Made by a program: the position numbers and the translations under genes. The notes under the pieces are model-generated. The model made no database searches, was not told the DNA's origin, and saw only the letters and a program-made list of their open reading frames with translations. A stretch of 64,000 bases of DNA from assembly GCF_000768065.1 (NCBI RefSeq), contig NZ_JRKM01000001.1, forward strand, positions 124,001-188,000, written 5' to 3'. The stretch comes from Aquabacterium sp. NJ1. Its GTDB lineage: Bacteria > Pseudomonadota > Gammaproteobacteria > Burkholderiales > Burkholderiaceae_C. Positions 7,921 through 62,277 of the stretch are shown here, piece by piece. How positions within the stretch are numbered: the first letter of the stretch is position 1; every line of letters begins with the position of its first letter.

Positions 7921-8591
7921 CTTCAGCCCTGGTGGGTGAAGCGGCTCAGTGGCAGCACGGTGAGGTGCGCCGATGACACGGTGTTCAGCATGAGGGCTGA
8001 ACGAGGCACAAGGCCATTGACATGGCCAGGCTGAACCGAGGCTCAGCTTCTACAAGGCAGGTCACGACTGCGACGCCAGCATGGCTGGACTTCAGGGAGA
8101 CCGAAATCTCCATTGAAGGCTTCGTGAACGCGATGTCCACAGGGAGCCATTGCAGTATGACCATCAAAGTGGGCGTTGCTCCAGGGTGCTTTTCGGCCTT
8201 TTGATTGACGCCATGGTCAATCGGCGAAGACGCGGTGCGCTTGGCCGTGGCGGTTTGTCTCTGCCTCCCATTTTTGCCAATAGGCAGATGGGGTTTGCCA
8301 GGCCACCCCACTGAGGTGGCGCAACGAGAAAACTGTGCCACCTCTCTGTAGAATGTCCTGAAACAAGATTTACACAAACTCCAATGACTTCAGGGAAACA
8401 ATGGAATGACAGTGTCCGAATTTGTCTTCCTGTCACGGTGGCCGGTGTGCTACAGCTAGCTTGTAGATGGGGCGGCTGCTTGTCCCCGTTTCATCGGGGA
8501 ATGGAGTGACCCATTGCGCGCGCTCCACTATCAGCCCGGCAAGTCTGCTGCTGAAAGTGGCCGTTGCAGTGTTCCGTGAAAGAGCGAATTT
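7921..8591. other. Gene-free region upstream of the defence operon
   Basis: About 670 bp without a convincing gene. It holds the second copy of the 22-bp repeat (8056-8077) and a hairpin TCCCCG/CGGGGA at 8483-8500 in what would be the leader of the sigma-factor gene. The promoter of the defence operon should lie in the last few hundred bases, but I cannot pick it out. Confidence 0.4.
8056..8077. repeat. 22-bp dispersed repeat, copy 2
   Basis: Same sequence as the copies at 5186-5207 and 31071-31092 apart from the eighth base. It lies about 135 bp beyond leader copy 3, between the radC cluster and the defence operon. Confidence 0.7.
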
Positions 8592-11240
8592 GTGACAGGT
8601 ATGGCTGTTCGCGACGTTGCATCCTTGAACCGGTTCCTCAGAATGGCTGTCTTGGCGGGAGTCGAAAGCGCGGTCCAGGTTCATATCGACCGAGGCGATG
8701 ACCTCAATGCACGCGATGAAAAGGGCCTGACGCCACTCATGTTGTCAGCGGCCCGCAACAAAGCTGCCGTTTGCAAGCTACTCATTCATTGCGGTGCTGA
8801 TGCTGGATTGCTTGATCCGTCCGGGAAAACAGCACTCGATATTGCACAGGCGGCTGCAGCGTATGAAGCGGTCGCTGTCATTGAGGCGGCTTTTCCATCT
8901 GCGGAACGCTCCAATGAAGGGGGGGATCTTGACGAACTCGCCACGACCGAGCTCAGTGAAAGCTCGGTTGAGGCGGGTCGTGAGCCATCCGCGCTTTGCC
9001 CTGAATGTCAAGATGTCCCTGAGCCTCCCAGCCTGAACCACTCGGATTCGGCGGGAGACATCGCCGAGGTGTCGTCGCCCATGATCGAATGGGCATCGGA
9101 TTTCGATGAGGATGGTGCTGCCTTCGACCTGACGGGGTGGGAGGCTGAAGATGTACAGCCGCCACCCGAAAGCGATCCTATGCTGTTAGCGGCAGCACTT
9201 GAAGTTCAACAGGCCATTTCCAAGCATCAGCCTATCGATACATCCATCGACTGGGAAGATTTTGATGCGTACCTGCCCGAGCGGGCGTCTCCACTTCTGC
9301 GCCCGGAAGATGTGGAGGCGCGCGAGCAACTCCGCCTTGTGCTGCTTAGGGCCATTCGCGAAGGTAGCGTGCCGGACTCGTTGATTGAGGATCTGTCGTT
9401 TGATGGAGACGGGGTACCTAGTGAAGAAGCTGGGGCCCTTCTGCGCATGGTGATCAATGACCTTGGCGCAGAAACTGATGAACGATTCGAATACTCGTCA
9501 GCATACGAAAACTTTGAGGTCGCTGTCTCCCCTGTTGAAAATGCGGACGAAGAAGAAGTCGTTGTGGATGCGCTGGCGTTCATAGATGATCTGGCGGCAC
9601 GGCGCAATGAGCCCATGCGCATCTATCAACGGGAGTTTCAACGCGAGTCTCTTCTCTCGGCTGAGGGAGAAGTGGCCCTCGGGCAGGCCATGGAGCGAGG
9701 TATTGAGACGGCGCTTGATGTGCTGGCCTCATGGCCCTCTGGCATTGGTGTAGTGCTTGACGGGGTGCGGATGGTGATGTCGGGTGCGAAGCCGCTTCGT
9801 TGGATTTCGGCTGGACCGCGCGTTGAGCCGTACGACATCAACGTGCATGCAGATGGGAAATTCGATGCCGAGCCAGACTTGCTGGCCGAAGACCCCAACG
9901 AAGAGGATGAGCACGGTTCGCAGTCCGGCTCCCATGAGGATGAATCCATTGACGAGTCGTCGGATTTTTTTGCACATGCTGAGCGACTGTCCGGCCTTTC
10001 CGTCAGTTCATCTCGCAGCGCTCTTGAATGGCGTGAATGCCGCAATGCGATTGAGGCACTTGGCCTGACCCGAGGTTTTCTGCTGGAGTTGGCTGACTCC
10101 AGCCTCTCTGGCGAGCAGGGGCCAGCGATGGCGTTCGCGCAGGCGATAAAGGGTTATCGGCGGTCACGCGACAAAATGACCGTTGCCAATTTGAAGCTCG
10201 TCTTTTCCATCGCGAAGAAGTATCTGTTCAGTGGACAGCCTTTGGACGATCTGGTCCAGGAGGGGAACATCGGGCTAATCAAGGCCGTCGATCGATATGA
10301 CTGGCGCAGGGGCTTCAAGTTTTCCACCTACGCTACCTGGTGGATTCGGCAGCAGGTTGGCCGGCATCTCGCCGACAAGAGCAAGACCATTCGCTTGCCA
10401 GTCCATATCTACGAGAAGGTTCAACGCATTGCCCAAGCCACACATGTCTTCGAAATGGAGGTCGGGCGGGCTCCTACGATTCATGAGGTCGCGGTGCGCG
10501 TGGACATGCCTGCGCACAAGGTTGCGGGGCTCAACCGTGTAGCGCAAGAGCCTTTGCCAATTGATGATGAGCCGGATGTGGATGCGCGAATCGCAGTGGG
10601 TGCACAGGGTGAGTTCATTGCCCGCGATCCGATGGATATCGTGTCCGATCTGCAATTGATCAATTCCGTTGATCGGCTGCTGGGAACGCTCAAGGCGAAA
10701 GACGAGCGCATCTTGCGTTTGCGCTTCGGCATCGGTGTGCCGGATTCGATGACGCTGGAAGAGATCGGCTTGCGACTCAATGTGACGAGAGAGCGCATCC
10801 GTCAACTCGAGGCGGCGGCCATTCGCCAGCTTAAACACCCGGGCCGAATTGAGCGGCTGCGACGCGAGTTCAGCAGCAGTCCACTTCCGAAGCGCGATCT
10901 CGGTATGGTGGCCGAAGGCGAGCTCGTTGATAACGAGTTGGACGGCAACCCAGGGGCTGTTTCGGAAGGCCAGGAGGCACGCGCCTCGTCTCGACCCAAT
11001 CAGGCGAAGCAACGGAGCGTGGATCCCGGTCGACCACAATCTACCGGGCAATCCGCGCTCGACAAATTGATCGATCAGTTACTCGATGCCGGGATCACGG
11101 TCGATGATGGCCGCGATGGAGGAAGTGGAAGGCTATGGGTGGACCTCACCGAGGCACCCGATATGCGCTCTCGTGGATTTGTTCGAAAGCTGATTGCCAT
11201 GGGGTTCGAGTTTTGGCCAGGAAAGGGCTATTGGAGATGA
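8592..11240 (+). CDS. Ankyrin-repeat/sigma70 fusion protein
   Basis: An 882-residue protein of unusual design. Residues about 35-98 form two to three ankyrin repeats ('DEKGLTPLMLSAARNKAAVCKLLIHCGAD'). Residues about 100-330 are acidic and low complexity. A region 1.2-like helix ('SAEGEVALGQAMERG') precedes a full sigma70 core: region 2 around 525-600 with 'LDDLVQEGNIGLIKAVDRYD' and '[12 protein letters not shown]', region 3, and region 4 around 695-755 with '[20 protein letters not shown]'. The last 60 residues form a separate domain ending 'FEFWPGKGYWR'. It could therefore direct RNA polymerase or decoy it. It overlaps the MORC-type ATPase gene by four bases (ATGA), so it is the first gene of the defence operon. 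GTG 8592 has AAAGAG upstream; ATG 8601 is the alternative start. Confidence 0.88.
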   Translation: MTGMAVRDVASLNRFLRMAVLAGVESAVQVHIDRGDDLNARDEKGLTPLMLSAARNKAAVCKLLIHCGADAGLLDPSGKTALDIAQAAAAYEAVAVIEAAFPSAERSNEGGDLDELATTELSESSVEAGREPSALCPECQDVPEPPSLNHSDSAGDIAEVSSPMIEWASDFDEDGAAFDLTGWEAEDVQPPPESDPMLLAAALEVQQAISKHQPIDTSIDWEDFDAYLPERASPLLRPEDVEAREQLRLVLLRAIREGSVPDSLIEDLSFDGDGVPSEEAGALLRMVINDLGAETDERFEYSSAYENFEVAVSPVENADEEEVVVDALAFIDDLAARRNEPMRIYQREFQRESLLSAEGEVALGQAMERGIETALDVLASWPSGIGVVLDGVRMVMSGAKPLRWISAGPRVEPYDINVHADGKFDAEPDLLAEDPNEEDEHGSQSGSHEDESIDESSDFFAHAERLSGLSVSSSRSALEWRECRNAIEALGLTRGFLLELADSSLSGEQGPAMAFAQAIKGYRRSRDKMTVANLKLVFSIAKKYLFSGQPLDDLVQEGNIGLIKAVDRYDWRRGFKFSTYATWWIRQQVGRHLADKSKTIRLPVHIYEKVQRIAQATHVFEMEVGRAPTIHEVAVRVDMPAHKVAGLNRVAQEPLPIDDEPDVDARIAVGAQGEFIARDPMDIVSDLQLINSVDRLLGTLKAKDERILRLRFGIGVPDSMTLEEIGLRLNVTRERIRQLEAAAIRQLKHPGRIERLRREFSSSPLPKRDLGMVAEGELVDNELDGNPGAVSEGQEARASSRPNQAKQRSVDPGRPQSTGQSALDKLIDQLLDAGITVDDGRDGGSGRLWVDLTEAPDMRSRGFVRKLIAMGFEFWPGKGYWR

Positions 11241-12730
11241 AACCCAAAACGCGCAATGCGCCACCGCGCGCGATGGCGATGCTCGAAGCTCTGCGCGGGC
11301 TTGGCTATTCGACGGCCGCCGCACTTGCCGATGTCATCGACAACAGCATTTCAGCTGGAGCAGGAGAGGTTCACGTAGATTTTACCTGGGACGGTCAGAA
11401 CAGTCGGATTGCTGTCCTGGACGATGGTCGCGGTATGGATGATGGTGAACTCGAAAGCGCCATGCGCCTTGGGGATAAGAATCCGCTTGATGCACGAGCC
11501 GCCCACGATCTCGGGCGATTCGGTATGGGCCTCAAGACGGCCTCCTTTTCTCAATGCCGCAGGCTCACGGTTGCCACCGTAAAAGATGGCTCGGCAAGTT
11601 GCCTTCGGTGGGACCTGGATGAACTCGCCGCCAATCCGGAGAGCGGCTGGCTTCTGTTCGAGGGGCCTGCGCCAGGGTCGAAGCCGTTCATCGCGAGCCT
11701 CAAGGGTAAGACGGCTGGAACGCTGGTTCTGTGGGAAACCCTGGACCGTGTCGTTACCCCAGGCTATACATCTGACGACTATCACGACCTCATCGACAAC
11801 GTCGAGTCTCATTTGGCAATGGTGTTTCATCGACTGCTTCAGGGGCCACGCGCAAAGCTTCGGCTGCTCTTGAATGGCAGCCCTGTCGCGCCTTGGGATC
11901 CCTTCATGTCGGGTCATCCTGCGAAGCCCTGGGCGTCTCCAACGACCAATCATCCGACCGATTACGGGGTGGTCTCGGTTCAGTGCCATGTCTTGCCTCA
12001 TCGCGACAAATTGACCAACGCCGAGTTCGAAGCAAGTGGTGGCCCGGCGGGTTGGACGGCTCAGCAAGGCTTCTATGTCTACCGGAACGAGCGACTCCTG
12101 GTTGCTGGCGGATGGCTTGGTCTTGGCAACTCGCGGGCATGGAACAGGGAAGAGGCTCACCGATTGGCTCGCATTCGCCTGGACATTCCCAACACAGCCG
12201 ACGCGGACTGGAAAATCGATGTCCGAAAATCGACTGCACGTCCACCTATTTCACTAAGGCCATGGCTGATGTCTCTGGCCGAGAACACGCGCGAACGGGC
12301 TCGGCACGTGTTCGCCTATCGGGGTACGCCAACGCCTGCGCAAGGCAACACACCGGTCGAGCAGGTTTGGCGGATTGATCGTGTCAAGGCCGGGATGCGA
12401 TATCGGATTGACGAGAAGCACGCTTCCGTCGCTGCAGTTCTTGCCAATGTCGGGGAGTTGCAGCCACTGGTGAGGGCGATGCTTCGAGTCATCGAGGAGA
12501 CCGTCCCAGTGCAGCGCATCTGGCTGGATACAGCAGAAAACAAGGAGACGCCACGAACGGGGTTCGAGGGTGAACCCAATGCGGCCGTGATCGAGGTCGC
12601 TCAGGTGCTCTTCGATGATCTGATCGAACGCAAGGGTCTGAGCATCGAGGAGGCGCGCAAGTCGATGGCGCGCACGGAACCGTTCCAAAAATATCCCGCG
12701 CTTGTCGCAAAACTAGGGAGTGAAAAATGA
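11237..12730 (+). CDS. MORC/MutL-type GHKL ATPase of a restriction-modification system
   Basis: A 497-residue protein with the GHKL ATPase fold at its N-terminus. The N box DVIDNS is near residues 31-36, the G1 motif DDGRGM near 61-67, and the G2 motif GRFGMGLKTAS near 93-103. This arrangement matches the MutL-like ATPases of prokaryotic restriction-modification systems from which eukaryotic MORC proteins were proposed to derive (Iyer, Abhiman and Aravind, 2008). Such proteins probably clamp DNA on ATP binding and couple recognition to nuclease action. The gene overlaps its neighbours on both sides by four bases (ATGA), so translation is coupled. The start at 11237 has TTGGAG immediately upstream, although the frame is open farther. 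Confidence 0.9.
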   Translation: MKPKTRNAPPRAMAMLEALRGLGYSTAAALADVIDNSISAGAGEVHVDFTWDGQNSRIAVLDDGRGMDDGELESAMRLGDKNPLDARAAHDLGRFGMGLKTASFSQCRRLTVATVKDGSASCLRWDLDELAANPESGWLLFEGPAPGSKPFIASLKGKTAGTLVLWETLDRVVTPGYTSDDYHDLIDNVESHLAMVFHRLLQGPRAKLRLLLNGSPVAPWDPFMSGHPAKPWASPTTNHPTDYGVVSVQCHVLPHRDKLTNAEFEASGGPAGWTAQQGFYVYRNERLLVAGGWLGLGNSRAWNREEAHRLARIRLDIPNTADADWKIDVRKSTARPPISLRPWLMSLAENTRERARHVFAYRGTPTPAQGNTPVEQVWRIDRVKAGMRYRIDEKHASVAAVLANVGELQPLVRAMLRVIEETVPVQRIWLDTAENKETPRTGFEGEPNAAVIEVAQVLFDDLIERKGLSIEEARKSMARTEPFQKYPALVAKLGSEK

Positions 12731-15639
12731 TTGCAGCAGAAGAGGCAGCAGTGCAGGCGCAGTTGCTCGAAGATGTCATCGCCACGGCGCAGCGGCTTGT
12801 GAAGGCTGAGAAGGATTCGTCAAAGATCACGCCGTCCTACATCGCTGAAAAGGTAAGTCTGGCCGCCGCGATGTTTGCGAGCGATCCGCCAGTGCCATTG
12901 GATGAGGCCAAGGCGGTTGCCACCCTGATTCAACGATTCAGCCACCGGATGGGCAAGGCCACTACCCTCAAGGACAACACCGGGCACTTCGATTGGCTCA
13001 CCGCCACTCGCAAGAAGGACTGGCATTACTGGCGCCGATATCGTGACTACCAAGAGTCCAAGCTGTCCGATGTGGTCGTCGATGGCCTTGACGAAGCGAC
13101 AGACGACATTCTCGGACTTCTCGAAGACCCGCTGCGGACAGATGCCTGGGATCGTCGCGGTCTCGTTGTCGGACATGTGCAGTCCGGCAAGACCAGCAAC
13201 TACACGGGCTTGATCAACAAGGCCGCAGACGCTGGCTACAAGATCATCATCGTGCTGGCGGGCATGCACAACAACCTGCGTTCGCAGACCCAGATGCGCC
13301 TTGAAGAAGGCTTCCTGGGCTATGAGACAACGGCAGATCGCGACGCGGGTGCGGCCATCGGCGTAGCCGGTTTTGGCGAGGACCTCAAAACCAACTCGGC
13401 AACGACGCGGGCGGAAAACGGCGATTTCAGCAAATCCATCGCCAAGCACTTTCATGGCATCTCCCCGGAAGAGCGTCCTTGGCTCTTTGTGGTCAAGAAG
13501 CAAAAAACCGTGCTGACAGAGCTTCTCAAATGGATTCAGGCGCGCGTGGCCGACACCCCAAGCTCGATGCCTGATTGGAAGTTCGTCACCAAGCTGCCGC
13601 TACTGATGATCGACGACGAGGCCGACAACGCTTCGGTGGATACCGGCGAACAGGTGTTCAACGACGATGGGACGCCCGACGAGGAGCACCAGCCCAAAAC
13701 CATCAACAGCTTGATCCGCCAACTGCTTCACTCCTTCACGCGCAAGGCCTATGTGGGCTACACGGCCACTCCGTTCGCCAACATCTACATTCACCACAAA
13801 GGAGCCACAGCCAAGGAAGGTCCAGATCTTTTCCCCAAGGCCTTCATCATCAATTTGGCCGCTCCGTCGAATTACGTTGGCCCTGCCCGTATGTTTGGCA
13901 AGTTGACCAAGGATGGCCGTGTAGGAGCCCTCCCACTGTCACGCAGCATCCTGGACCATTACGACCCGGAAGCCGATGTGGGATGGATGCCGCCCAAGCA
14001 CAAGAAGACGCACATCCCCGTCTACAGGGGGCATGAGGCGATACCGCTGTCCCTGCGCAAGGCCATCCATTCCTTCGTGCTTGTTTGCGCCGCGCGCGAA
14101 CTACGAGGCCAAGGGGCCGAGCACAGCTCCATGCTGATTCACGTCACTCGATATGTGGCGGTGCAAGACCACGTGCGCGAGCAGGTCGAGGAAACTGTGC
14201 GCCGCATGCGGCAGAAGGTCACCCGTGGCAGCGACGCCGATGAGTTGCTCATGCAAATGCGCGAGATCTGGGATGAAGACTTCATCCCCACGCGCGACAA
14301 AGTCGCCGAGCTCTCTTCAACTGTGGAGCGTCCTCCCGAACTGCCCTCGTGGGATGACGTGGTCGCGAAGCTGCCCGATGTACTGAATGACATCGTCGTG
14401 CGCTCCATCAATGGAACGGCCAAAGATGCATTGGATTACGCAACTCCCGGCGCCTCGCTCAAGGTCATCGCCGTCGGAGGCGATAAGCTCGCTCGGGGCC
14501 TGACCCTTGAAGGTCTTTGCGTGAGCTACTTCGTCCGCACGACGAAGATGTACGACACGCTGATGCAGATGGGCCGTTGGTTCGGCTATCGACCGGGATA
14601 CCTGGACCTCTGCCGCCTCTACACCTCGCCGGACTTGGTGAAGTGGTTCGGCCACATCGCAGACGCCTCCGAGGAGCTGCGCGAAGAATTCGACTTCATG
14701 GCGAAGGCGAAGCTCACGCCAGAGCAATACGGCCTCAAGGTCATGTCGCACGAGATTCTCACCGTCACCTCGCCGTTGAAGATGCGCAACGCGCAGACGC
14801 TGTCCCTGACTTACAGCGGTACGCGGCCCCAAACCATCCTCTTCCACCGGGACGCCAGAGTCCAAGGGGCGAACCTCGCCGCGACCGACGCGTTGATAGC
14901 CTCCCTCGGCATGAATTTCTTGCCGGGGCCGAAGTATCCACGCGATGGCGATGCTGACTCTTGGTCAGGCGCTCGCCTTTGGAAAGATGTCGATGCTTCG
15001 AATGTGCTTGCATTCTTGAGCGCCTATGCGACCCACCCCAATGCCACCAGTGCCAAGGCGGGAGTGCTCGCGGACTTCATCACCAAGATGATCGACATTG
15101 GCAAATTGAAGCAATGGAGCATCGCGCTTTTAACCGGTGGCGAAGGGATTGGCGCAACGCATGTCTTCCCTGGCGACTTCGAAGTCAAGTCCTTCCAGAC
15201 ACGCAAAACCGAAGACCCCGACCCACCGGGCATCAAGGATCCCGCCATGTTCGCCATCGGCGTGCTGACCGATCCCAAGGACGAGGGCATCGATCTCGAT
15301 GACGATGTTTGGCGTGATGCGCTGGCCCGCACTCGCGCGGCGTGGAAGCCCGAGCCCGCTCGCGGCCGAGTCAATCTGCCAACCATTCCCAGCGGCAAAG
15401 GCATCCGCGAGTCGCGCGACAGGCTTGGAGGCAAGGCCGATCGCGGCCTGTTGCTGCTTTACTCCCTTGCCCCCTACTACAAGGGCAAGGCGATGCTCCC
15501 TGAAAACCTCATCGTGCCTGGCTGGGACAAGCCCATCATGGCCTTTGCCATCGCGTTCCCGTCGAGCGAGAACGGCGTTCGCGTGGAATACGAAGTAAAC
15601 CTCCTCTATTGGATGCAGGAATATGGCCCGTCCGAGTAA
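12727..15639 (+). CDS. Z1-domain superfamily 2-like ATPase
   Basis: A 970-residue protein with a helicase-like ATPase core. Walker A is GHVQSGKT near residue 150, Walker B LLMIDDEAD near 295, and YTATPF near 345. The Z1-family signature LARGLTLEGL is followed by QMGRWFGYRPGY near 613, which fills the place of motif VI with its arginine fingers. Z1 proteins are the motor component of MutL/MORC-containing restriction-modification systems and are thought to translocate on or remodel DNA. The downstream gene begins 17 bases before its stop codon. Length and motif spacing are normal for the family and no frameshift is seen. Confidence 0.92.
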   Translation: MIAAEEAAVQAQLLEDVIATAQRLVKAEKDSSKITPSYIAEKVSLAAAMFASDPPVPLDEAKAVATLIQRFSHRMGKATTLKDNTGHFDWLTATRKKDWHYWRRYRDYQESKLSDVVVDGLDEATDDILGLLEDPLRTDAWDRRGLVVGHVQSGKTSNYTGLINKAADAGYKIIIVLAGMHNNLRSQTQMRLEEGFLGYETTADRDAGAAIGVAGFGEDLKTNSATTRAENGDFSKSIAKHFHGISPEERPWLFVVKKQKTVLTELLKWIQARVADTPSSMPDWKFVTKLPLLMIDDEADNASVDTGEQVFNDDGTPDEEHQPKTINSLIRQLLHSFTRKAYVGYTATPFANIYIHHKGATAKEGPDLFPKAFIINLAAPSNYVGPARMFGKLTKDGRVGALPLSRSILDHYDPEADVGWMPPKHKKTHIPVYRGHEAIPLSLRKAIHSFVLVCAARELRGQGAEHSSMLIHVTRYVAVQDHVREQVEETVRRMRQKVTRGSDADELLMQMREIWDEDFIPTRDKVAELSSTVERPPELPSWDDVVAKLPDVLNDIVVRSINGTAKDALDYATPGASLKVIAVGGDKLARGLTLEGLCVSYFVRTTKMYDTLMQMGRWFGYRPGYLDLCRLYTSPDLVKWFGHIADASEELREEFDFMAKAKLTPEQYGLKVMSHEILTVTSPLKMRNAQTLSLTYSGTRPQTILFHRDARVQGANLAATDALIASLGMNFLPGPKYPRDGDADSWSGARLWKDVDASNVLAFLSAYATHPNATSAKAGVLADFITKMIDIGKLKQWSIALLTGGEGIGATHVFPGDFEVKSFQTRKTEDPDPPGIKDPAMFAIGVLTDPKDEGIDLDDDVWRDALARTRAAWKPEPARGRVNLPTIPSGKGIRESRDRLGGKADRGLLLLYSLAPYYKGKAMLPENLIVPGWDKPIMAFAIAFPSSENGVRVEYEVNLLYWMQEYGPSE

Positions 15640-16633
15640 CGAATTCCTCATGGCATGGTCGTCGCTCACGGGCATCGACACCGAGCCAGGCTGGCAGGCC
15701 ATCGCGCTACCTTCTGCGGGGGCGCTGGACGTGCGTGCTGGGCGGCGCTCACCGGACAATGCCGAGGCGGTGCTGGTGGGGTTTCCGACCGTGCGTCTGG
15801 CTGTGGCCGACAAGCTTCCGGAGGGCCAGGGGTTCACTGTGGAACGAGCGGACCCTGAGGGCAACGGCCGACTCTGGCTCGCCCTGACGCGAAAGACCGC
15901 TGGCAGCACTGAGCTTTTTGCAACCATGGCATGCGATGTTGTCGGCGCTCTCGACGAGGCGGTGGCGACCGGAGCCGACGAGGGAAAGCTTGTGCGTGTC
16001 TTCATCAGGCGTGTTGGGGCCTGGCAGGAGTTCATGCGCAAAGGAACCCAAGCCCTAAGCCCTGAGTCCGAGATCGGCCTGATTGGCGAGCTCACGCTGC
16101 TGCGTGCCATCATTGAAGCTGGAGTCCCCGCAGCGCCTGCTATTGAATCGTGGGTTGGACCACTGGATGGTCTCCAGGACTTCGAGCTCGGCACTGGGGC
16201 TGTGGAGGTCAAGACCACGCTTTCTTCTAGTAGCTTTCCCGCCAGGATTGGTTCGCTTGAGCAGTTGGACGATGCGGTACGTCAGCCTTTATTTATGGCT
16301 GGCGTGAAACTGAGGCAAACCCCAGGCGGTCAGAATCTACCTGAGTTTGTCGAGGCGATGCGTCAGGCAATAAAAGGCGAACTGGAGGCAGAAAGGGTGT
16401 TTACCGAGCGTTTGCTTGTTGCGGGTTACATCGACTCACATGCAGATCGCTATCCTCGGCGGTTTGAGCATGCTGGAATGCGTGTCGTCGAAGTGACGAA
16501 TGATTTTCCTCGCTTGACCTCAGGCAAGGTTCCTGCAGGGATCATGAGGGCCACCTATGACATTGACCTCGACAAGGTTCCTGGCGAGAACGTCGGGACT
16601 GAGGGTGCGTTGAAAGAACTGGGAGCGATCTGA
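15623..16633 (+). CDS. PD-(D/E)XK motif protein (DUF4420-like)
   Basis: A 336-residue protein. The nuclease-like motif lies around residues 155-200: 'SEIGLIGELTLL' supplies the early glutamate, then 'GLQDFELGTGAVEVKTT' supplies the acidic residue and the ExK pair. This matches the PD-(D/E)XK proteins regularly found next to Z1 and MORC-type genes, where they are the likely DNA-cutting subunit. It overlaps the Z1 gene by 17 bases and ends two bases before the AIPR gene, so it is made from the same transcript. The ATG at 15623 has GCAGGA upstream. Confidence 0.88.
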   Translation: MARPSNEFLMAWSSLTGIDTEPGWQAIALPSAGALDVRAGRRSPDNAEAVLVGFPTVRLAVADKLPEGQGFTVERADPEGNGRLWLALTRKTAGSTELFATMACDVVGALDEAVATGADEGKLVRVFIRRVGAWQEFMRKGTQALSPESEIGLIGELTLLRAIIEAGVPAAPAIESWVGPLDGLQDFELGTGAVEVKTTLSSSSFPARIGSLEQLDDAVRQPLFMAGVKLRQTPGGQNLPEFVEAMRQAIKGELEAERVFTERLLVAGYIDSHADRYPRRFEHAGMRVVEVTNDFPRLTSGKVPAGIMRATYDIDLDKVPGENVGTEGALKELGAI

Positions 16634-18589: not shown

Positions 18590-19399
18590 ATGTCGATACT
18601 GCCTGCTCAAACAATTAAATCAATGCTTTCAAATGGCAAGCTTGTTGTGGGGGGCGAGGAATCTCAGGTAGAGGCTGCAAGTTACGATCTTCGCATTGGA
18701 ACAATATTTAAAGATGAAAAAATATTTGATGGCATTCGTAACTCGGGAGAGTCCAGCATAACCCTTCCTCCCGGGGGGATGGCAAGTATATTTACCAAGG
18801 AAGAACTTGATCTGCCAAGCGATATTTGTGCAACCGTATTCCCAATAAATTCGCAGAGCTCAAAAGGACTGCTGGTCCTGAATCCAGGGCATGTTGACCC
18901 TGGATATCAAGGCGCTATTACGGTAAAAATTCTGAATATCAGCACTCAAAAAATAACCATCAGAGTGGATGACCCAATTTTCACAGCCATATTTGATCGC
19001 CTAGAAAGCCCTACAAATGAGCCGTATAAAAACAAACAGAAAAGTCGCAAACAGCGAGAGCAAGAGTTTTCTTCCGTAGATATAAATTCGTCGCCCGATT
19101 CGCTTTTGAAATTGATCGGGAGGCCCAACGAGGAATCCATCAACTCTTTAATAACGAGACATTGGGCTTCGAAATTGGCGATCCTGTCAACTGTGGGAGC
19201 GCTGATTTTTGCGATAATCGCGGCGTTCCCTGTTTTCCAAGATGCAAGAAAAAAGGTCACGGACCTGGTCGAAGAACAAAAAATACCAGATAAGGCACCC
19301 GGCGGATCAATAAACGATGATGCCCCGGTGGTTAAGGGTGAAAAGCAAAGCAAGTCCCTCGCTCCAAACCAAGGTTCAAAAGTCGGAAATGCAAAATGA
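18590..19399 (+). CDS. dCTP-deaminase-like protein with membrane anchor
   Basis: A 269-residue protein. Residues 1-140 look like the trimeric dCTP deaminase/dUTPase fold: 'SYDLRIG' at 31-37 and 'HVDPGYQG' at 101-108 match conserved motifs. In the family's catalytic motifs an arginine follows the 'SS' loop and a glutamate follows the DPG loop; by eye these align with K92 and K113, so ordinary deaminase activity is doubtful. After a lysine-rich linker comes one membrane segment (about 194-216) and a short charged tail. GAGGA precedes the ATG. The gene is clearly AT-richer than its neighbours and overlaps the HAD gene by four bases, suggesting the pair moved in together. It may sense or bind nucleotides at the membrane. 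Confidence 0.75.
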   Translation: MSILPAQTIKSMLSNGKLVVGGEESQVEAASYDLRIGTIFKDEKIFDGIRNSGESSITLPPGGMASIFTKEELDLPSDICATVFPINSQSSKGLLVLNPGHVDPGYQGAITVKILNISTQKITIRVDDPIFTAIFDRLESPTNEPYKNKQKSRKQREQEFSSVDINSSPDSLLKLIGRPNEESINSLITRHWASKLAILSTVGALIFAIIAAFPVFQDARKKVTDLVEEQKIPDKAPGGSINDDAPVVKGEKQSKSLAPNQGSKVGNAK

Positions 19400-20184
19400 C
19401 AGATAAATTTCCCGCAAGTTCGAGTGCTCCCCTAGTCATTTTTGACTTGGATGATACTCTGGTGGATACGAGCCATGTTTACTGGGAGGCGCGGACGAAA
19501 TTCCTTGGTTACATGAACGATCTTGGGTTTGATGTTGAAGAGGTTTTGTCGCGGTTTGAAGAAATTGATACCAATTTATTGGGGAAATACGGTCATGCGC
19601 CAGAAAGATATCTGGCGTCAATGCGTGAAACGTATGGATCCCTTTGTAAGGAGGTCGGGGGGGGCGAATCCCCTGATGTTATGGAGAGAATCCAGCATGC
19701 CGGAGATTGGGTCATTAAAACGGTTCCCGAACTTATACCGGATGCAATAAAACTATTGGAGGGTGTCAAAAGTCTTGGATTTGCCGCCATCTTGCTGACA
19801 AGAGGGGTCGAGGCCGTTCAAAAGAGGAAAATAGAACTCCACGGACTGGAGAAATACTTCTCGAAAATAGAGGTGGTCAGTAAAAAGGATTCCGATTTGT
19901 TTGCCTCCATTATGAAGGGGGCGAAGGCGGAGCCATCACAATGCTGGGTCGTAGGGGACTCAATTAAATCGGATATCAATCCTGCCATAATTTCTGGCGC
20001 AAATTGTATTCTCTATCTCTACACTCATCATTCATACTATTGGCGGCAAGAGTATGGTGCAAGTCCAGTTGGGGAGTTTCGTATTGCCCATAACTTGATT
20101 GATGTCTTGAGTATATTGGGGGACCCAAGCGGAAGTCCGCTTACTTCATCGGTGCCAGAAAGAAGTCCACATTTGCCCTTGTGA
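19396..20184 (+). CDS. HAD-superfamily hydrolase
   Basis: A 262-residue HAD phosphatase. Motif I is 'VIFDLDDTLVDT' with the nucleophile aspartate and the DxD pair. Motif II lies at 'AILLTRG', a candidate motif III lysine sits in 'VVSKKDSDL', and motif IV is 'WVVGDSIKSDINPAI'. The helical cap between motifs I and II is of the type seen in phosphoglycolate phosphatase and pyrimidine nucleotidases, so a small phosphorylated compound or nucleotide is a plausible substrate. The start overlaps the deaminase-like gene by four bases, so the two proteins are made together. Composition is AT-rich like its partner. Confidence 0.85.
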   Translation: MTDKFPASSSAPLVIFDLDDTLVDTSHVYWEARTKFLGYMNDLGFDVEEVLSRFEEIDTNLLGKYGHAPERYLASMRETYGSLCKEVGGGESPDVMERIQHAGDWVIKTVPELIPDAIKLLEGVKSLGFAAILLTRGVEAVQKRKIELHGLEKYFSKIEVVSKKDSDLFASIMKGAKAEPSQCWVVGDSIKSDINPAIISGANCILYLYTHHSYYWRQEYGASPVGEFRIAHNLIDVLSILGDPSGSPLTSSVPERSPHLPL

Positions 20185-20510: not shown

Positions 20511-20969
20511 ATGGCAGACATCGTTCCACCAACAGTGCGAAGCCGCATGATGTCGGGTATTCGTGGCGGTGACACCAAGCCAGAGTTGATGGTCCGCAAG
20601 TGTCTCTTTGCTTCTGGGTACCGTTTCCGCCTTCACCGAAAGGATTTACCTGGGTGTCCTGACGTGGTCTTGACAGGGCGTCGCATCGCGGTCTTTGTCC
20701 ACGGATGCTTTTGGCATCAACACCTCGGTTGCAAATATGCCAAGCTACCCGGCACAAGGGTTGATTTTTGGAGAGGGAAGCTGTCCGCGAATGTAGTGCG
20801 GGATCGGCACGCAATCGAATTGCTCGGAGTGCTAGGCTGGCGTGTGCTTGTCATTTGGGAATGTGCAACACGAACCAAGGTGGGGCGTGATGCCTTGCCC
20901 GAAAAATTGCGTGAATGGATTGAGGGCTCGACTCTCTATGGTGAAATCAGCCTTCAGACGACTCCATGA
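20511..20969 (+). CDS. vsr: Very short patch repair endonuclease (Vsr)
   Basis: A 152-residue Vsr endonuclease. Such enzymes nick next to T:G mismatches left by deamination of 5-methylcytosine, protecting the methylated host from mutation. The catalytic aspartate is D51 in 'LPGCPDVVL', with H69 in 'VHGCFWHQH' and C66 and C74 as likely zinc ligands; D51 and H69 fall at the same positions as in the E. coli enzyme. AGGAG lies upstream of the ATG. It converges with and overlaps by 23 bases the cytosine methyltransferase gene on the other strand, the natural partner whose methylation creates the mismatches. Confidence 0.95.
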   Translation: MADIVPPTVRSRMMSGIRGGDTKPELMVRKCLFASGYRFRLHRKDLPGCPDVVLTGRRIAVFVHGCFWHQHLGCKYAKLPGTRVDFWRGKLSANVVRDRHAIELLGVLGWRVLVIWECATRTKVGRDALPEKLREWIEGSTLYGEISLQTTP

Positions 20970-22503
20970 AATCAAGGACGACTTCAGCAATTTGTTTGGC
21001 TAGGAATGGGGGTACGGCATTGCCCACCTGCCAATACTGCTGGGTTCGATTTCCTTCGAAAAAATAGTTGTCTGGAAAGGTTTGAAGGCGCGCAGCTTCA
21101 CGAACGGTCCAGCTTCTGCACTGAGATGGGTCGTAGTGAATGTAGTAATGCCCGTCTTTGGCAATGTGCGAAACAACCGTCGTCGAAGGCTCATCTGCCA
21201 GCTGGACTCTGAATCTGTCGAGAAATGGGACCGCCTCAGCGGACATATTGACGTGATCAGGCAGCAGTCGCGGAGGGAACTGCGGAAGTCGAGGGGCGTG
21301 TTTTTGCAGTTTCGCAAAACACGAAGCAAACAGATAGCGGTGAAGGTCCGACCTCATGTGGCTGCGCGTCTCGTGTTGGAGAACACCGCCAAGTTTCGGG
21401 TCGTGATACCAAGACTTCAACTCATCGGAAAGCGCACCTGAAAAGATTATTTCCTTCTCGATATAACGCCCACCGGATGACTCATATTTTTGAGCCTTTT
21501 TCCAAGCGGCATCCATTTCCGTTTCGATCATGCTCCTGATGGGTAAGCGCCATCCTTTCAAGCCGTGAGGGGCTTGCTTGACGGCAGCTAGCCAAGCTTC
21601 TTGACTGTCCGGTTCTTTGGACAGCCTGCTTCGCAACAGCGGTAGCCCCTTCAAGGCAGATCTGACGCCGACCTTACCCTTGCGCTTTTTCAGCAAAAAC
21701 CTTTCAGGTTGGCCGAGCAATGGGCCTGCCTGTCCGGCAAGATCCGAGCGAATCCCGAACAGGATCACCCTGTGCCGGGATTGCGGTAAACCATAGTTTT
21801 CGGATTCGATCACGTAGTCATGTGGGTCCAGATCTTCGCCTTCGACCACCAGTGACCGAATGCGGTATTCATGGCCGTTACCCGGTGAGCGCAGGTCAGA
21901 CAGGATTCGGTCAAAAATGGGAGACCCCCCATGCTGTGACGTCAACATGCCTTTGACGTTTTCCATCACGAAGACAGACGGACCGAACTCTTTGATGATC
22001 CGCAGATATTCCGTGTAGAGAAAGTGGCGCTTGTCCTTTTCGAAGTTCTCCGGGTCTTTGGGGCGTAGTCGTGAGCGCCCCGCCATCGAGTAGGCCTGAC
22101 AGGGTGGACCACCAATCAGCACCCATTGCTTGGCGTTGCCTAGGGCATCTCTGATCCACGCGTCGATCTCTTTGTGGGGCGTGACCCCAAGCTCTGCACA
22201 CTTGGCCTCTTGCGCGCCAAGGCGCGCAGCCTCCGGAACTGAAGGATGACCAAAAAGTTCCTCGCGAGTGATCTTTCCCTGAACGTAATCGTAGTAGCAG
22301 TCGGGAATCTTGTCCTTTTTGAAGTGTCGAACTAGCGCGCGCAGAGACAGCGTCTTGTGTGCGATGGGATCCTTCTCGATGGAGACTTTGACCTCGAAGC
22401 GACGATTTCCTTTGTCGTCAAGCAATGACGAAAAACCTTCGCCAAGCCCTCCTGGCCCGGCGAACAAATCAATCACCGGAATTGCGGCTTTTGCTGTTGA
22501 CAT
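20947..22503 (-). CDS. DNA (cytosine-5)-methyltransferase
   Basis: A 518-residue C5-cytosine methyltransferase. Motif I is 'VIDLFAGPGGLGEGF', motif IV is 'GGPPCQAYS' with the catalytic cysteine at 135, motif VI 'VMENVKG', motif VIII 'QSRHRVILFG', and motif X 'QVGNAVPPFLAKQI'. All motifs are in canonical order, so the enzyme should be active; the target sequence cannot be read. The ATG at 22503 is chosen because family members start a few residues before 'IPVIDLFAG'; an in-frame ATG at 22548 would add 15 residues. It would provide the protective mark for the MORC/Z1/nuclease operon, as in the described MutL-type restriction-modification systems. Confidence 0.93.
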   Translation of the reverse strand: MSTAKAAIPVIDLFAGPGGLGEGFSSLLDDKGNRRFEVKVSIEKDPIAHKTLSLRALVRHFKKDKIPDCYYDYVQGKITREELFGHPSVPEAARLGAQEAKCAELGVTPHKEIDAWIRDALGNAKQWVLIGGPPCQAYSMAGRSRLRPKDPENFEKDKRHFLYTEYLRIIKEFGPSVFVMENVKGMLTSQHGGSPIFDRILSDLRSPGNGHEYRIRSLVVEGEDLDPHDYVIESENYGLPQSRHRVILFGIRSDLAGQAGPLLGQPERFLLKKRKGKVGVRSALKGLPLLRSRLSKEPDSQEAWLAAVKQAPHGLKGWRLPIRSMIETEMDAAWKKAQKYESSGGRYIEKEIIFSGALSDELKSWYHDPKLGGVLQHETRSHMRSDLHRYLFASCFAKLQKHAPRLPQFPPRLLPDHVNMSAEAVPFLDRFRVQLADEPSTTVVSHIAKDGHYYIHYDPSQCRSWTVREAARLQTFPDNYFFEGNRTQQYWQVGNAVPPFLAKQIAEVVLDFMESSEG

Positions 22504-22697
22504 ATGTTCTTGTTTTGCATTCTGCCAGGAACTAGCGATCTTGCGCATCTGGCGGCCTACTGCAACCCAAAGCCTTTAATGATATCCCGTATGAGCGATA
22601 GCTCATTCGCTCCCTCGGTCTTCTGTGCTGAGGGAACTAGCCACGGCATTGCTTTGCCCCCTTCGTCGCAGAGTCCAAGTCCGCGCGCAACGTACCG

Positions 22698-23383: not shown

Positions 23384-26300
23384 TCATGGCGCCACGGCGC
23401 TCTGAATCAGTGCCTTCTCATTGTGAAGCCATGGATGATTGGGTAAGTCATGGTGCAATTCAGAAAAGTGTGTCAGGCCACGCCACTGTGCTGCGTCACC
23501 AATTACATACAGGCGATGCTTGGCCCGCGTGATGGCCACGTTCAGCAGGTTGGGCTTGCCAGAAGCCCAGGCACGCGCCCCTGACCCGCCCTGACCAGGG
23601 GCCGTGCCCAGCACCAGGAACACGATTTCTGCTTCCTTGCCCTGGAAGGTGTGCACGGTTCCGCACTCGATCTGGCCCAACCCTGCATCCTTGATTCGCT
23701 TGATGCAGGCGTTCTTGACCTTGCGAAACGGCGAGATCACGAACACCTTGGCGGCCTTGTCCTTGCCTCCGGCCTTCCTGGCAGGTGTGAACGCCGGTTG
23801 CTGTTGAAGTTGGCGCAGGCAGTTCACCAGGACATGGAGTTCGTCTTCGATGACCGGATGGCTGGCGCGGGTGGCGCGAACGTCCAGCCAGGCGCTGTCA
23901 CCGAGCACGCAGGTGAACTTCGTTTTCTGAGGCTGGCCCTGATCGTCCACACGGCCATGCACCATCTGTTCGGCGTAGGCGATGCGGTTGGCCACGTTGA
24001 ACATGGGATCGTCGCAGCGGCGGTGCGTGCGCAAGGGCATGCCTGTCCAGATGGGCTGAGCCATCTCAGCATCGACGGCGCCGCTGGTGACTCGTGATGT
24101 GACCCAGGAGCCATGGCGGGTGACACGGTCAGCCAGGGTCTGAACCGATTCGTCATTGGGTGACCACATGGGGTCCACGGCGTGGCGGCGGCGGAACTCT
24201 TCGACCAGCATCAGGGGCACGGTGAACACGGGTTCGATCTGCAAGGGATCGCCCACGAGCACCGCCCGCTGACTGCGCCAGATGGCACCGGCTGCAGATT
24301 GCGGGGTGGCTTGTCCTGCCTCATCGATCAGCAGCCAGCCCAGGCTGTCCTGACCCATGCCAGCGAACAGGCGGTCGAAGGAAGCGAGGGTGGTCGAGAC
24401 CACCGGCACGATGAAGAAGAAGGCGTCCCACAACAGGGGGCGCTGCTCCAAGGGCAGCTTGTCTTTCAGCGAACCGGTGAGCATGCCGTTGACGGCACGC
24501 AGGTTGCCGATGAACTTGCCTGCGTTGGCCAGCACTGTCAGTCGGTGCAGCTCCATGGCTTGCAGGAAGATGCGAGCCCGCAGTGCGTCCAGCGCGGGGC
24601 TGACCGCCACCGACGCGCGATGGCGCTGATCGGCGGGTAGTTGCCAGAAACTGGCATTGGGGAAGTGCCGCGCCCCGGCGTCGTGTCCGGCTTTCAGCGC
24701 ACGTTGGTGGCCTTGCAGTTCGCGCTCGGAACCCTGTAGTGTCAAGACCTGGGTGCTGTGCGCCTCGCGCTGTTGCTCAAGCCGTGCCTCGGCCATGGCG
24801 CCATCCTGAGCCAGTTGGGCCAGCGCTTCGGTGGCTTGTGCCAAGGCCTGCGTGGGCTCGACCAGCGTGGCGCGCAGCGTCTTCAAGCGTTCGGTGTCTT
24901 GGCCAAACCAAGCGCACAGCTTGTCCCACAGTTTGGGCAGGCATTGCGCACGCGCCTGGTCGAGCGTGGCCCGGCGGGAATCGACCAAGGCATGCTGGAT
25001 GGCCTTGTTGTCCTGAAGTTGTTTGAGGTGGCGACTGGCTTGGTCGAGGGCTTGGGCCAGGGCCTGCACGGCATCACGCTGGGCATTGACCCGCTGTTGG
25101 CAGGCATCGATTCGCTGAGCCGCCTTTTCAGCCTGAAGCAAGACGCCACGGCGGGCATCGAAGTCACCCAGCAGCGCCAGGAAGGACTTCTTGGCCGCAT
25201 GCCATTCGCCCTGATAGCGTGTGTAGTCGTTGCTGGCCGCTTCCAGCAGTTGTTTGATCGACGGTGGCAACGGATCGGCGGGCGCAGGGGTGCTGGCTTG
25301 AGCGGTCGCTGGGGCGGCGTCTTCTTGTGTGTTGCCGGGCGCTGGCGTTTCGGTGTTGGGTGCCTGCCGTGGTTCGTCCCGAAAAAATCCCCGGGCGAAA
25401 GATCGGCGGTTCCCGGCGTTGCCCAATGCGGCAGCCACCAGGCCCCAGCAGTCGATGGGTTGCTTGTCGTCGTCCACCACCTTCTGGGCCGCGAACACCT
25501 CGCGGATCACCTCGTCAAAGTAGGTGGCCGAGGCAAAGTCGCTGTGTACCTTCGCGCGTGCAGGCAGCTCCTGCGTGATGTTCTTGACCGCGTTGTTGTT
25601 GGTGCTGGTCACAACGATGGACGAGCCGCCCACCACCTTGGCCTTGAGGGGAAAGAAATTCCTGCCCGCCACGCTCACGCTGTCTTCAAACAGCTCGATG
25701 GGGCGGCTGAGCGCGGCGATCTTGCGCGCACGCTCGGTGACCACCTCGGCGATCACGTCGCACAGCAAGGTGGTCTTGCCCGTGCCCGGTGGTCCATTGA
25801 TGCCCAGCGTGCCGCCATCGCGCCCCAAGGTGTTGAGCACCTGGGCCACCGCAGCCTGCTGAGCCAGCACCAGCGGGGCTTCTGGTGAGGCTGGCCAACG
25901 AGCGCTGGGCAAGCGGGCCACGCTCACCAGTTCACCCATGGCCGCGTGGTCGTTCAGGATGTCGATGCGTTGTTCAGATGCTATGGGTGCGCCCAGAAAG
26001 GTGCTCAGGGCTTTGCCAAAGGGCTTGTTCTTGCCCGCCTGAGTGATCAGGCGGTTGAGGTCATCCAGGTAGAAGGAGTTCAGGTAGTCGATGGCGGCGT
26101 TGAGGCTGTCATCGAGAAAGCGGCGCTTGACCCGTGACACCCGAACCACCACACGCCAGTCCAGGCCTGCCGCATCGGCCCCTGGGCCCAGCAGCTTGCA
26201 CACGGTGCGCAACTCTTCGTCCAGATCGCTCCAGGTCAAGGGGCTTGGCGCTGGTGGGGTGTCCGGCTGGCCAGTGGGCGGTGTTTGCTGCGCGTCGGTG

Positions 26301-60036: not shown

Positions 60037-62277
<2,241 letters not shown>

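What the first reader, a model, noticed from the sequence alone, without database searches (positions are those of the whole stretch)
8592..11240. A sigma70 factor fused to ankyrin repeats leads a MORC/Z1 defence operon
The first gene of the operon encodes a full sigma70 core (regions 2, 3 and 4) behind ankyrin repeats and a long acidic segment. It overlaps the MORC-type ATPase gene by four bases, so it is translated with it. Sigma factors are not standard parts of restriction-modification systems. The ankyrin repeats may bind a phage or host protein and the sigma part may redirect or sequester RNA polymerase, or it may control the operon's own promoter. The sequence proves only the architecture and the linkage; the role is inference.
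Basis: partly seen in the sequence, partly recalled or inferred. Interest (0 to 1): 0.8.

Follow-up and report, generated by a model that had tools for sequence, protein, structure and literature searches.

The report
Defence operon led by ankyrin-sigma protein
The first gene of this bacterial anti-virus operon makes a protein that joins ankyrin repeats to a near-complete copy of the cell's main transcription-starting factor; the kind is already known (MzaA), but in several relatives the transcription-factor half has been replaced by a fresh copy of the host's own gene, which suggests that contact with the host's transcription machinery is central to how this defence works.

Summary
Observation confirmed. 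8592-11240 encodes an 882-aa protein with ankyrin repeats, an RpoD-like region 1.1, and regions 1.2, 2, 3 and 4, and overlaps the MORC ATPase gene by 4 bases. It is known in kind: MzaA of the MzaABCDE anti-phage system, here a divergent branch (all five proteins below NCBI's equivalog cut-offs) with an extra C-terminal domain resembling the end of Zorya ZorC. Of the 80 closest MzaB loci, 73 start with an MzaA.

New here: (1) The ankyrin/middle half evolves with MzaB and MzaE; the sigma half does not. (2) In at least four, probably five or six, Mza lineages the sigma half groups inside RpoD, mostly with its own host's (97% identity in Cupriavidus pinatubonensis, 89% in Nitrosospira); a single clade for all MzaA cores is rejected (AU p 1.8e-59). 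(3) Most -35, -10 and core-binding residues stay nearly invariant, while the sigma finger (needed, as recalled, for starting RNA synthesis) decays after capture.

Best reading (about 0.4): MzaA is the promoter- or polymerase-docking arm of the defence complex rather than an ordinary activator. A decoy for phage anti-sigma proteins and an operon regulator remain open. No binding or phage experiment was possible.

The parts
8592..11240 (+). mzaA: ankyrin-RpoD-like sigma fusion, 882 aa
   Evidence: PADLOC MzaA 7.8e-77; NCBIfam MzaA 3e-146, 489 bits, cut-off 800
8625..8891 (+). ankyrin repeats (residues 12-100)
   Evidence: Pfam; D42, G45, L49, L64, G68, G78, A81, A85 nearly invariant in 78 MzaA; pLDDT blocks 95-98
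9123..9281 (+). Mza-specific W/DW motif segment (residues 178-230: W183, P192, D195, D216, W221, L228-P229)
   Evidence: alignments A2, A3, A4
9312..9491 (+). region-1.1-like segment (residues 241-300)
   Evidence: alignment to own RpoD, hhalign P 5.5e-6, probability 69, model
9606..9701 (+). sigma region 1.2 (residues 339-370)
   Evidence: Pfam PF00140
9702..10115 (+). acidic segment in the place of RpoD's non-conserved region
   Evidence: alignment; not matched by Pfam Sigma70_ner in the window protein
10185..10385 (+). sigma region 2 (core binding, -10 recognition)
   Evidence: Pfam PF04542; W584 and Q587 in 78 of 78
10551..10631 (+). region 3.2 (sigma finger), degenerate
10677..10838 (+). 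sigma region 4 (-35 recognition)
   Evidence: Pfam PF04545; R733, R735 in 78 of 78, R737 and Q738 in 77 of 77
11013..11237 (+). C-terminal domain resembling the end of Zorya ZorC
   Evidence: 19 of 21 members of A5 match PADLOC PDLC00613, best 8.2e-9; fold helix-strand-strand-helix-strand-strand
11237..12730 (+). mzaB: MORC/GHKL-type ATPase
   Evidence: PADLOC MzaB 1.6e-200
15623..16633 (+). mzaD: PD-(D/E)XK protein (DUF4420)
   Evidence: PADLOC MzaD 1.1e-57, Pfam PF14390
16636..18411 (+). mzaE: AIPR protein
   Evidence: PADLOC MzaE 3.3e-215
20511..20969 (+). Vsr endonuclease, part of the usual neighbourhood
   Evidence: Vsr in 45 of 50 sigma loci with full flanks
20947..22548 (-). cytosine-5 DNA methyltransferase, part of the usual neighbourhood
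   Evidence: homologue in 42 of 50 sigma loci with full flanks

Best explanation
[not shown]
For: Over 70 loci, front-half distances rank-correlate with MzaB and MzaE at 0.74-0.85, as MzaB with MzaE (0.78), but sigma-core distances only at 0.38 and 0.36. Sigma cores nest in RpoD, with own-host pairing for L110, L134, L094 and L116; one-clade AU p 1.8e-59; identity to own host RpoD 97, 89, 75, 72, 66% for L110, L134, L086, L094, L116. These operons lie apart in the MzaB tree. -35 contacts R733, R735 in 78 of 78, R737 and Q738 in 77 of 77, E734 in 77 of 78; -10 W584 and Q587 in 78 of 78, R591 in 77 of 78; core-binding Q556 in 78 of 78. Finger identity to the nearest RpoD compared: 28/28 L110, 24/28 L134, 18/28 L089, 13/28 L086, 14/29 L116, 7-8/28 in the L094 group, whose regions 2.2, 2.3 and 4.2 keep 19/21, 13-14/14 and 31-33/37; 267 RpoD pairs of 70-90% identity keep 0.82 of region 3.2.
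Against: No binding, complex or targeting was tested. Many MzaA cores, the window's included (45% to the nearest RpoD compared), have drifted far without regaining host likeness, so matching the present host is not strictly needed. The front half follows MzaC less well (0.50 and 0.47; core 0.30). T440 of the -10 recognition is kept in only 31 of 78. Regions 1.1, 1.2, 3.1 and 4.1 are also loosely kept (0.25, 0.41, 0.32, 0.40), so the finger (0.26) is not the only weak part; RpoS and RpoH fingers are also less conserved than their cores, though less markedly. Six systems do without MzaA.
Confidence: 0.4

Rival explanations
1. Integrated decoy: the sigma half is bait. Phage proteins that attack host sigma70 or its polymerase (such as AsiA) also bind MzaA, and the ankyrin half then switches on the Mza effectors. 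Recapture keeps the bait like the host's sigma.
For: Repeated replacement by the host's own RpoD. The sigma core differs more than MzaB in 38 of the 40 close pairs listed (of 107), e.g. L115/L117 MzaB 0.07, ankyrin 0.06, core 0.30. AsiA-type anti-sigma proteins are described in a subset of jumbo phages (PMC7824862, passages read).
Against: A bait need not keep base-contacting residues, yet those are among the most invariant ones, while region 4.1, which recalled AsiA structures involve, is loosely kept (0.40). Many MzaA cores are only 41-60% like their host's RpoD. Ankyrin and middle segments also diverge faster than MzaB (medians 0.56 and 0.70 against 0.37; core 0.56), so speed alone does not point to the sigma half.
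Confidence: 0.25
2. Operon regulator: MzaA is a working alternative sigma (or a promoter-occupying repressor) that sets expression of the mza operon, with the ankyrin half as sensor.
For: First gene, overlapping mzaB; intact promoter contacts; stretches upstream of mzaA are conserved between window, L057 and L058, which are close relatives.
Against: Consensus-type contacts predict no private promoter; no sigma70-like site was found in 8200-8620 (0.2 expected by chance, so a weak test); finger decay argues against selection for initiation; the front half follows MzaB and MzaE.
Confidence: 0.22
3. Host reprogramming: MzaA replaces RpoD on polymerase during infection and shuts down or rewires transcription for the cell's benefit, with MzaB-E as separate effectors.
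For: Near-complete RpoD architecture including a region-1.1-like segment; conserved core-binding residues.
Against: Does not explain why the front half tracks MzaB and MzaE so closely.
Confidence: 0.1

Closest known systems
MzaABCDE anti-phage system (Gao et al. 2020, recalled; not held); NCBIfam NF041931-NF041935
   Same: Same five genes in the same order; the NCBIfam MzaA model matches from its position 2, so the ankyrin part belongs to the known family too. The window lies in the same starred MzaB group as L119, whose MzaA passes NCBI's cut-off (841.5 against 800).
   Different: All five proteins are below NCBI's equivalog cut-offs (489/800, 779/850, 1144/1500, 369/420, 928/1050); the ZorC-like C-terminal domain lies outside the match to the MzaA model.
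Type II system of the language-model study (PMC9523054, one passage read)
   Same: Core proteins including a restriction-type protein and a cytosine methyltransferase, with AIPR and MORC proteins; the authors call it reminiscent of mzaABCDE
   Different: That paper reports about 20% identity to mzaBCDE and mzaA only in a few of its systems; among the closest MzaB relatives here mzaA is the rule (73 of 80).
Host housekeeping sigma factor RpoD (window 60043-61854)
   Same: Regions 1.1-like, 1.2, 2, 3, 4
   Different: Added ankyrin, W/DW segment and C-terminal domain; degenerate finger; 309 bits against the RpoD cut-off of 555.
Zorya ZorC
   Same: The last 60-75 residues resemble each other (19 of 21 tails)
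   Different: No other part of MzaA matched a ZorC model.

Membership tests
MzaABCDE system | five genes mzaA-B-C-D-E in order on one strand | tested here: met
MzaABCDE system | each protein is a homologue of its Mza model | tested here: met
   PADLOC and NCBIfam hits for all five
MzaABCDE system | NCBI equivalog score cut-offs (a naming rule) | tested here: not met
   0 of 5 proteins reach the cut-off; so it is described as a divergent Mza relative, not as an NCBI equivalog
MzaABCDE system | falls in one group with a system that passes the MzaA cut-off | tested here: met
   MzaB quick tree, starred 98 group of 86 rows incl. window and L119; L119 MzaA 841.5 bits
MzaABCDE system | protects against phages | not testable with these tools
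   needs plaque assays
RpoD / group 1 sigma factors | regions 1.2, 2, 3, 4 | tested here: met
RpoD / group 1 sigma factors | housekeeping copy, RpoD equivalog score | tested here: not met
   309 bits against 555; the genome's RpoD is at window 60043-61854
RpoD / group 1 sigma factors | directs transcription initiation | not testable with these tools
   needs run-off transcription
Zorya (ZorC) | ZorC body with EH signature | tested here: not met
   match only to the C-terminal end of ZorC models

The most novel reading that the evidence does not exclude
A defence system that finds its target through transcription: the Mza effector complex carries a sigma70 copied again and again from the host's own rpoD, kept only for docking on polymerase and promoters and stripped of initiation, so that promoters or polymerase on invading DNA become the place of attack or the alarm.
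Probability: 0.35. Interest if true: 0.85.

Novelty: new variant of a known kind. Interest (0 to 1): 0.62.

Why it matters
MzaA is a named part of a known defence system, and no account of what it does was found in the searches made. Serial replacement of its sigma half by host-type RpoD, with promoter contacts kept and the sigma finger lost, makes concrete and cheap tests possible (core binding, promoter binding, finger-independent function). If the docking reading holds, it would add transcription-coupled targeting to the known ways in which bacteria recognise phage DNA.

Tried and rejected
Considered and rejected: that MzaA is just a second RpoD (scores, architecture); that the sigma part is a relative of RpoS or RpoH (cores group with RpoD); that the MzaA cores form one clade apart from RpoD (AU test); that the fusion is a one-off of this genome. 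The dCTP-deaminase-like and HAD genes between mzaE and vsr do not look like part of the system: 0 of 50 loci.

Led nowhere: promoter scan upstream (none); Foldseek for the C-terminal domain alone (no match at E 0.001 or better); PDB sequence search for it (best E 0.3); literature (searches, and 93 for ZorC): nothing found on what MzaA does or on sigma recapture. The library lacks most subscription papers, Gao 2020 is not held, and three listed papers that contain the word Mza (PMC10740426, PMC10855318, PMC12479173) were seen only as listings. Mza occurs in Pseudomonas island lists (PMC12629846, passages). PMC12839542 (passages) describes a sigma-like HTH in BrxL, not a whole sigma factor.

Limits: the 80 loci are the best 80 of 322 confirmed relatives. 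Host RpoDs were sought for 30 loci, chosen partly because they nested in RpoD (29 genomes held, L089's not; 28 with an MzaA), so the 7 of 28 whose own-host RpoD is the best of 29 (about 1 expected; L121 is a tie) come from a biased sample. Finger comparisons for L089 used the RpoD of L061's host, and for L097 and L048 that of L094's host. L116 is a long branch; L086 and L089 lie inside the RpoD group without resolved partners. The trees are quick ones and their roots are not inferred. The profile of the middle segment that finds 78 of 79 MzaA ORFs was built from them. L109 and L135 were left out (no motif found), L045 and L047 as duplicates of L068 and L059. The RpoD reference is 26 sequences of one family. 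Pfam was not run on the whole MzaA set. The match lists are cut at their weak ends. E. coli numbers of sigma70 contacts, and what the sigma finger does, are recalled. The 24 RpoS rows include hits below that model's cut-off (11 of 60 genomes over it).

Full report
WHAT IS THERE. The ORF 8592-11240 (+) has 882 codons and carries ankyrin repeats (residues 17-94), sigma region 1.2 (341-370), region 2 (532-598), region 3 (608-655) and region 4 (696-749), all found by Pfam. Its stop overlaps the start of the next gene as ATGA at 11237-11240. mzaB and mzaC also overlap by 4 bases, mzaC and mzaD by 17, and mzaE follows mzaD after 2 bases (coordinates), which reads as one tightly coupled operon (inference; no transcript data). 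PADLOC and NCBIfam name the proteins MzaA (7.8e-77; 3e-146), MzaB (1.6e-200; 1.1e-234), MzaC (8.2e-304; 0), MzaD (1.1e-57; 2.2e-110) and MzaE (3.3e-215; 1.8e-279). This is the MzaABCDE (MZA) system; its first description by Gao and colleagues in 2020 is recalled and could not be read. The match to the NCBI MzaA model runs from model position 2 to 712 of 726, so ankyrin plus sigma is the normal MzaA architecture, not a novelty of this window. All five proteins are below NCBI's equivalog cut-offs, so this is a divergent branch.

Aligned with the genome's own RpoD (window 60043-61854), residues 247-300 sit on region 1.1 and the acidic stretch on RpoD's acidic non-conserved region. A profile comparison of the MzaA middle segment with RpoD region 1.1 gives P 5.5e-6, probability 69, at 9% identity: suggestive rather than strong. 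The AlphaFold model (mean pLDDT 75.6, pTM 0.48; ankyrin blocks 95-98) has the order helix-strand-helix-helix-strand there, and its best PDB matches are E. coli sigma70 chains (best E 1.7e-19, 594 alignment columns, but TM-scores of only 0.2-0.3 by query length). The C-terminal 75 residues form a small helix-strand-strand-helix-strand-strand domain; 19 of 21 such tails match the end of a Zorya ZorC model, best 8.2e-9. 37 of 78 MzaA have at least 60 residues after region 4.

LINKAGE. A scan of 84,980 species genomes with an MzaB alignment gave 337 pattern matches, 322 relatives and the best 80 as loci. 73 of 80 have an MzaA directly upstream of mzaB; six Pseudomonas loci have a cytosine methyltransferase gene there and no MzaA-like ORF in the locus; one (L103) is cut by the contig end and its leader shows only part of the middle segment. 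Of 50 sigma loci with at least 3 kb before and 11 kb after the mzaB start, all 50 have mzaC, D and E, 42 a Dcm homologue, 45 Vsr, 49 at least one of the two. In reverse: in 369 genomes of the class a profile of the front half matched over most of its 322 positions in 2, G000 and G577; in G577 mzaB lies about 1.5 kb further on, room for a sigma half that I did not read. All other listed matches end at or before position 170, mostly ankyrin-type hits. In 299 genomes of the family, 5 listed matches begin at MzaA model position 2, and all 5 are followed by mzaB (for four, for the window). In the MzaB tree the six methyltransferase-first systems sit inside a starred group of sigma-bearing ones, which suggests loss of the sigma gene, though the root is not inferred.

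TWO HALVES WITH TWO HISTORIES. Over 70 loci with A, B, C and E, pairwise distances of the ankyrin and middle segments follow MzaB and MzaE (Spearman 0.74-0.85; MzaB with MzaE 0.78) but those of the sigma core do not (0.38 and 0.36). Against MzaC the values are 0.50 and 0.47, and 0.30 for the core. With eight suspected replacements left out the MzaB-core value is 0.51, against 0.77 and 0.82 for the front segments. A quick tree of sigma cores (76 MzaA, 32 RpoD, 12 RpoS, 10 RpoH) puts MzaA with RpoD and several MzaA inside RpoD. With the RpoD of 29 host genomes, a careful tree of 59 rows pairs L134 with Nitrosospira RpoD (100/98), groups L110 with two Cupriavidus RpoDs (99/90) and L094/L097/L048 with Limnohabitans RpoD (100/94), and pairs L116 with its acidobacterial RpoD (100/100, long branch); one clade for MzaA is rejected, AU p 1.8e-59. 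Identity of the core to the own host's RpoD is 97% (L110), 89% (L134), 75% (L086), 72% (L094), 66% (L116), while their ankyrin and middle parts are nearest to other MzaA. In L110 the DNA match to host rpoD starts near codon 356 of MzaA and runs nearly to its end at 86.7%. L110's MzaB is sister to that of L119, another Cupriavidus (starred 99), whose sigma core is only 59% like its host's RpoD: a difference within one genus. L089's MzaB is kin to that of L082/L083, and L082's core is only 44% like its host's RpoD. Well-supported branches give at least four replacements (L110, L134, the L094 group, L116); L086 and L089 also lie inside the RpoD group and their operons lie apart in the MzaB tree, so five or six is likely. 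L097 shows that a captured sigma can move on: its core is nearer to the RpoD of L094's host (0.71) than to its own (0.68). Against a strict need for host match: the window's core is 45% like the nearest RpoD compared, and many others are 41-60% like their host's.

WHAT IS KEPT AND WHAT IS LOST. In 78 MzaA the residues that in E. coli sigma70 (numbering recalled) read the -35 and -10 elements are almost fixed: R584, R586, W434, Q437 in 78 of 78, R588 and Q589 in 77 of 77, E585, W433 and R441 in 77 of 78, H455 in 75 of 78; T440 is the exception, 31 of 78. Core-binding Q406 is 78 of 78. The mean share of MzaA with the RpoD residue is 0.83 in region 2.3, 0.72 in 2.2, 0.71 in 4.2, but 0.41 in 1.2, 0.40 in 4.1, 0.32 in 3.1, 0.26 in 3.2 (the finger) and 0.25 in 1.1. 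Within-family identity of the finger is 0.22 against 0.46 for the whole core; RpoS 0.40/0.58, RpoH 0.34/0.53, RpoD 0.80/0.85. The replaced cores suggest an order of events: finger identity to the nearest RpoD compared is 28/28 in the freshest (L110), 24/28 in L134, 18/28 in L089, 13/28 in L086, 14/29 in L116, 7-8/28 in the L094 group, whose regions 2.2, 2.3 and 4.2 stay near RpoD; 267 RpoD pairs of 70-90% identity keep 0.82 of region 3.2. Since the finger's role (recalled) is in starting RNA synthesis and promoter escape, selection seems to hold promoter and polymerase contact but not efficient initiation.

MECHANISM. The best-supported reading is a docking arm: sigma half on polymerase and promoters, front half on the Mza machinery. 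In C. pinatubonensis a second copy of the front half without any sigma follows mzaE (L110:17149-18198; front-half profile E 1e-44), so the front half can exist as its own unit. Decoy for anti-sigma proteins and operon regulation are the main rivals; none of the steps 'binds polymerase', 'binds MzaB-E' or 'targets phage DNA' was shown here.

NOVELTY. Gene and system are known; this window adds a divergent member with a ZorC-like tail. The recapture of host RpoD and the finger decay were not found in print in searches of an open-licence library, which cannot exclude prior description elsewhere.

Noticed in passing
window 18590-19399 and 19396-20184 (+): A dCTP-deaminase-like protein with what looks by eye like a C-terminal membrane helix, overlapping a HAD-family hydrolase gene, between mzaE and vsr; neither has a homologue in 50 related loci with full flanks.
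   Followed up: partly
L110:17149-18198 (+): A sigma-less copy of the MzaA front half (ankyrin plus W/DW segment, 349 aa) directly after mzaE in Cupriavidus pinatubonensis; the only clear one among the ORFs of L045-L139.
   Followed up: partly
G360 (genome of L110): C2:1938554-1940398, C4:206717-208345, C2:1264863-1265615: Further RpoD-like paralogues besides the main RpoD and MzaA in C. pinatubonensis.
   Followed up: no
L113, L118, L123, L124, L133, L136: Pseudomonas Mza systems that lie among sigma-bearing ones lack mzaA and carry the cytosine methyltransferase gene in first place, with vsr on the other strand before it.
   Followed up: partly
L048 (IMGVR_UViG_3300026473_000726): A contig classed as viral carries all five mza genes with a recaptured RpoD-type sigma half, close kin of Limnohabitans L094.
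   Followed up: partly
L046 (G004): mzaC is split into two ORFs about 2.5 kb apart, as by an insertion; only described.
   Followed up: no
window 11013-11237 and ZorC: A small C-terminal domain shared by MzaA and Zorya ZorC, without a credible match to a solved structure; may be a common interaction or nucleic-acid module of otherwise unrelated defence systems.
   Followed up: partly
window 23384-26788 (-): A long reading frame of 1134 aa that looks by eye like a superfamily I helicase, possibly a further defence gene; not searched.
   Followed up: no
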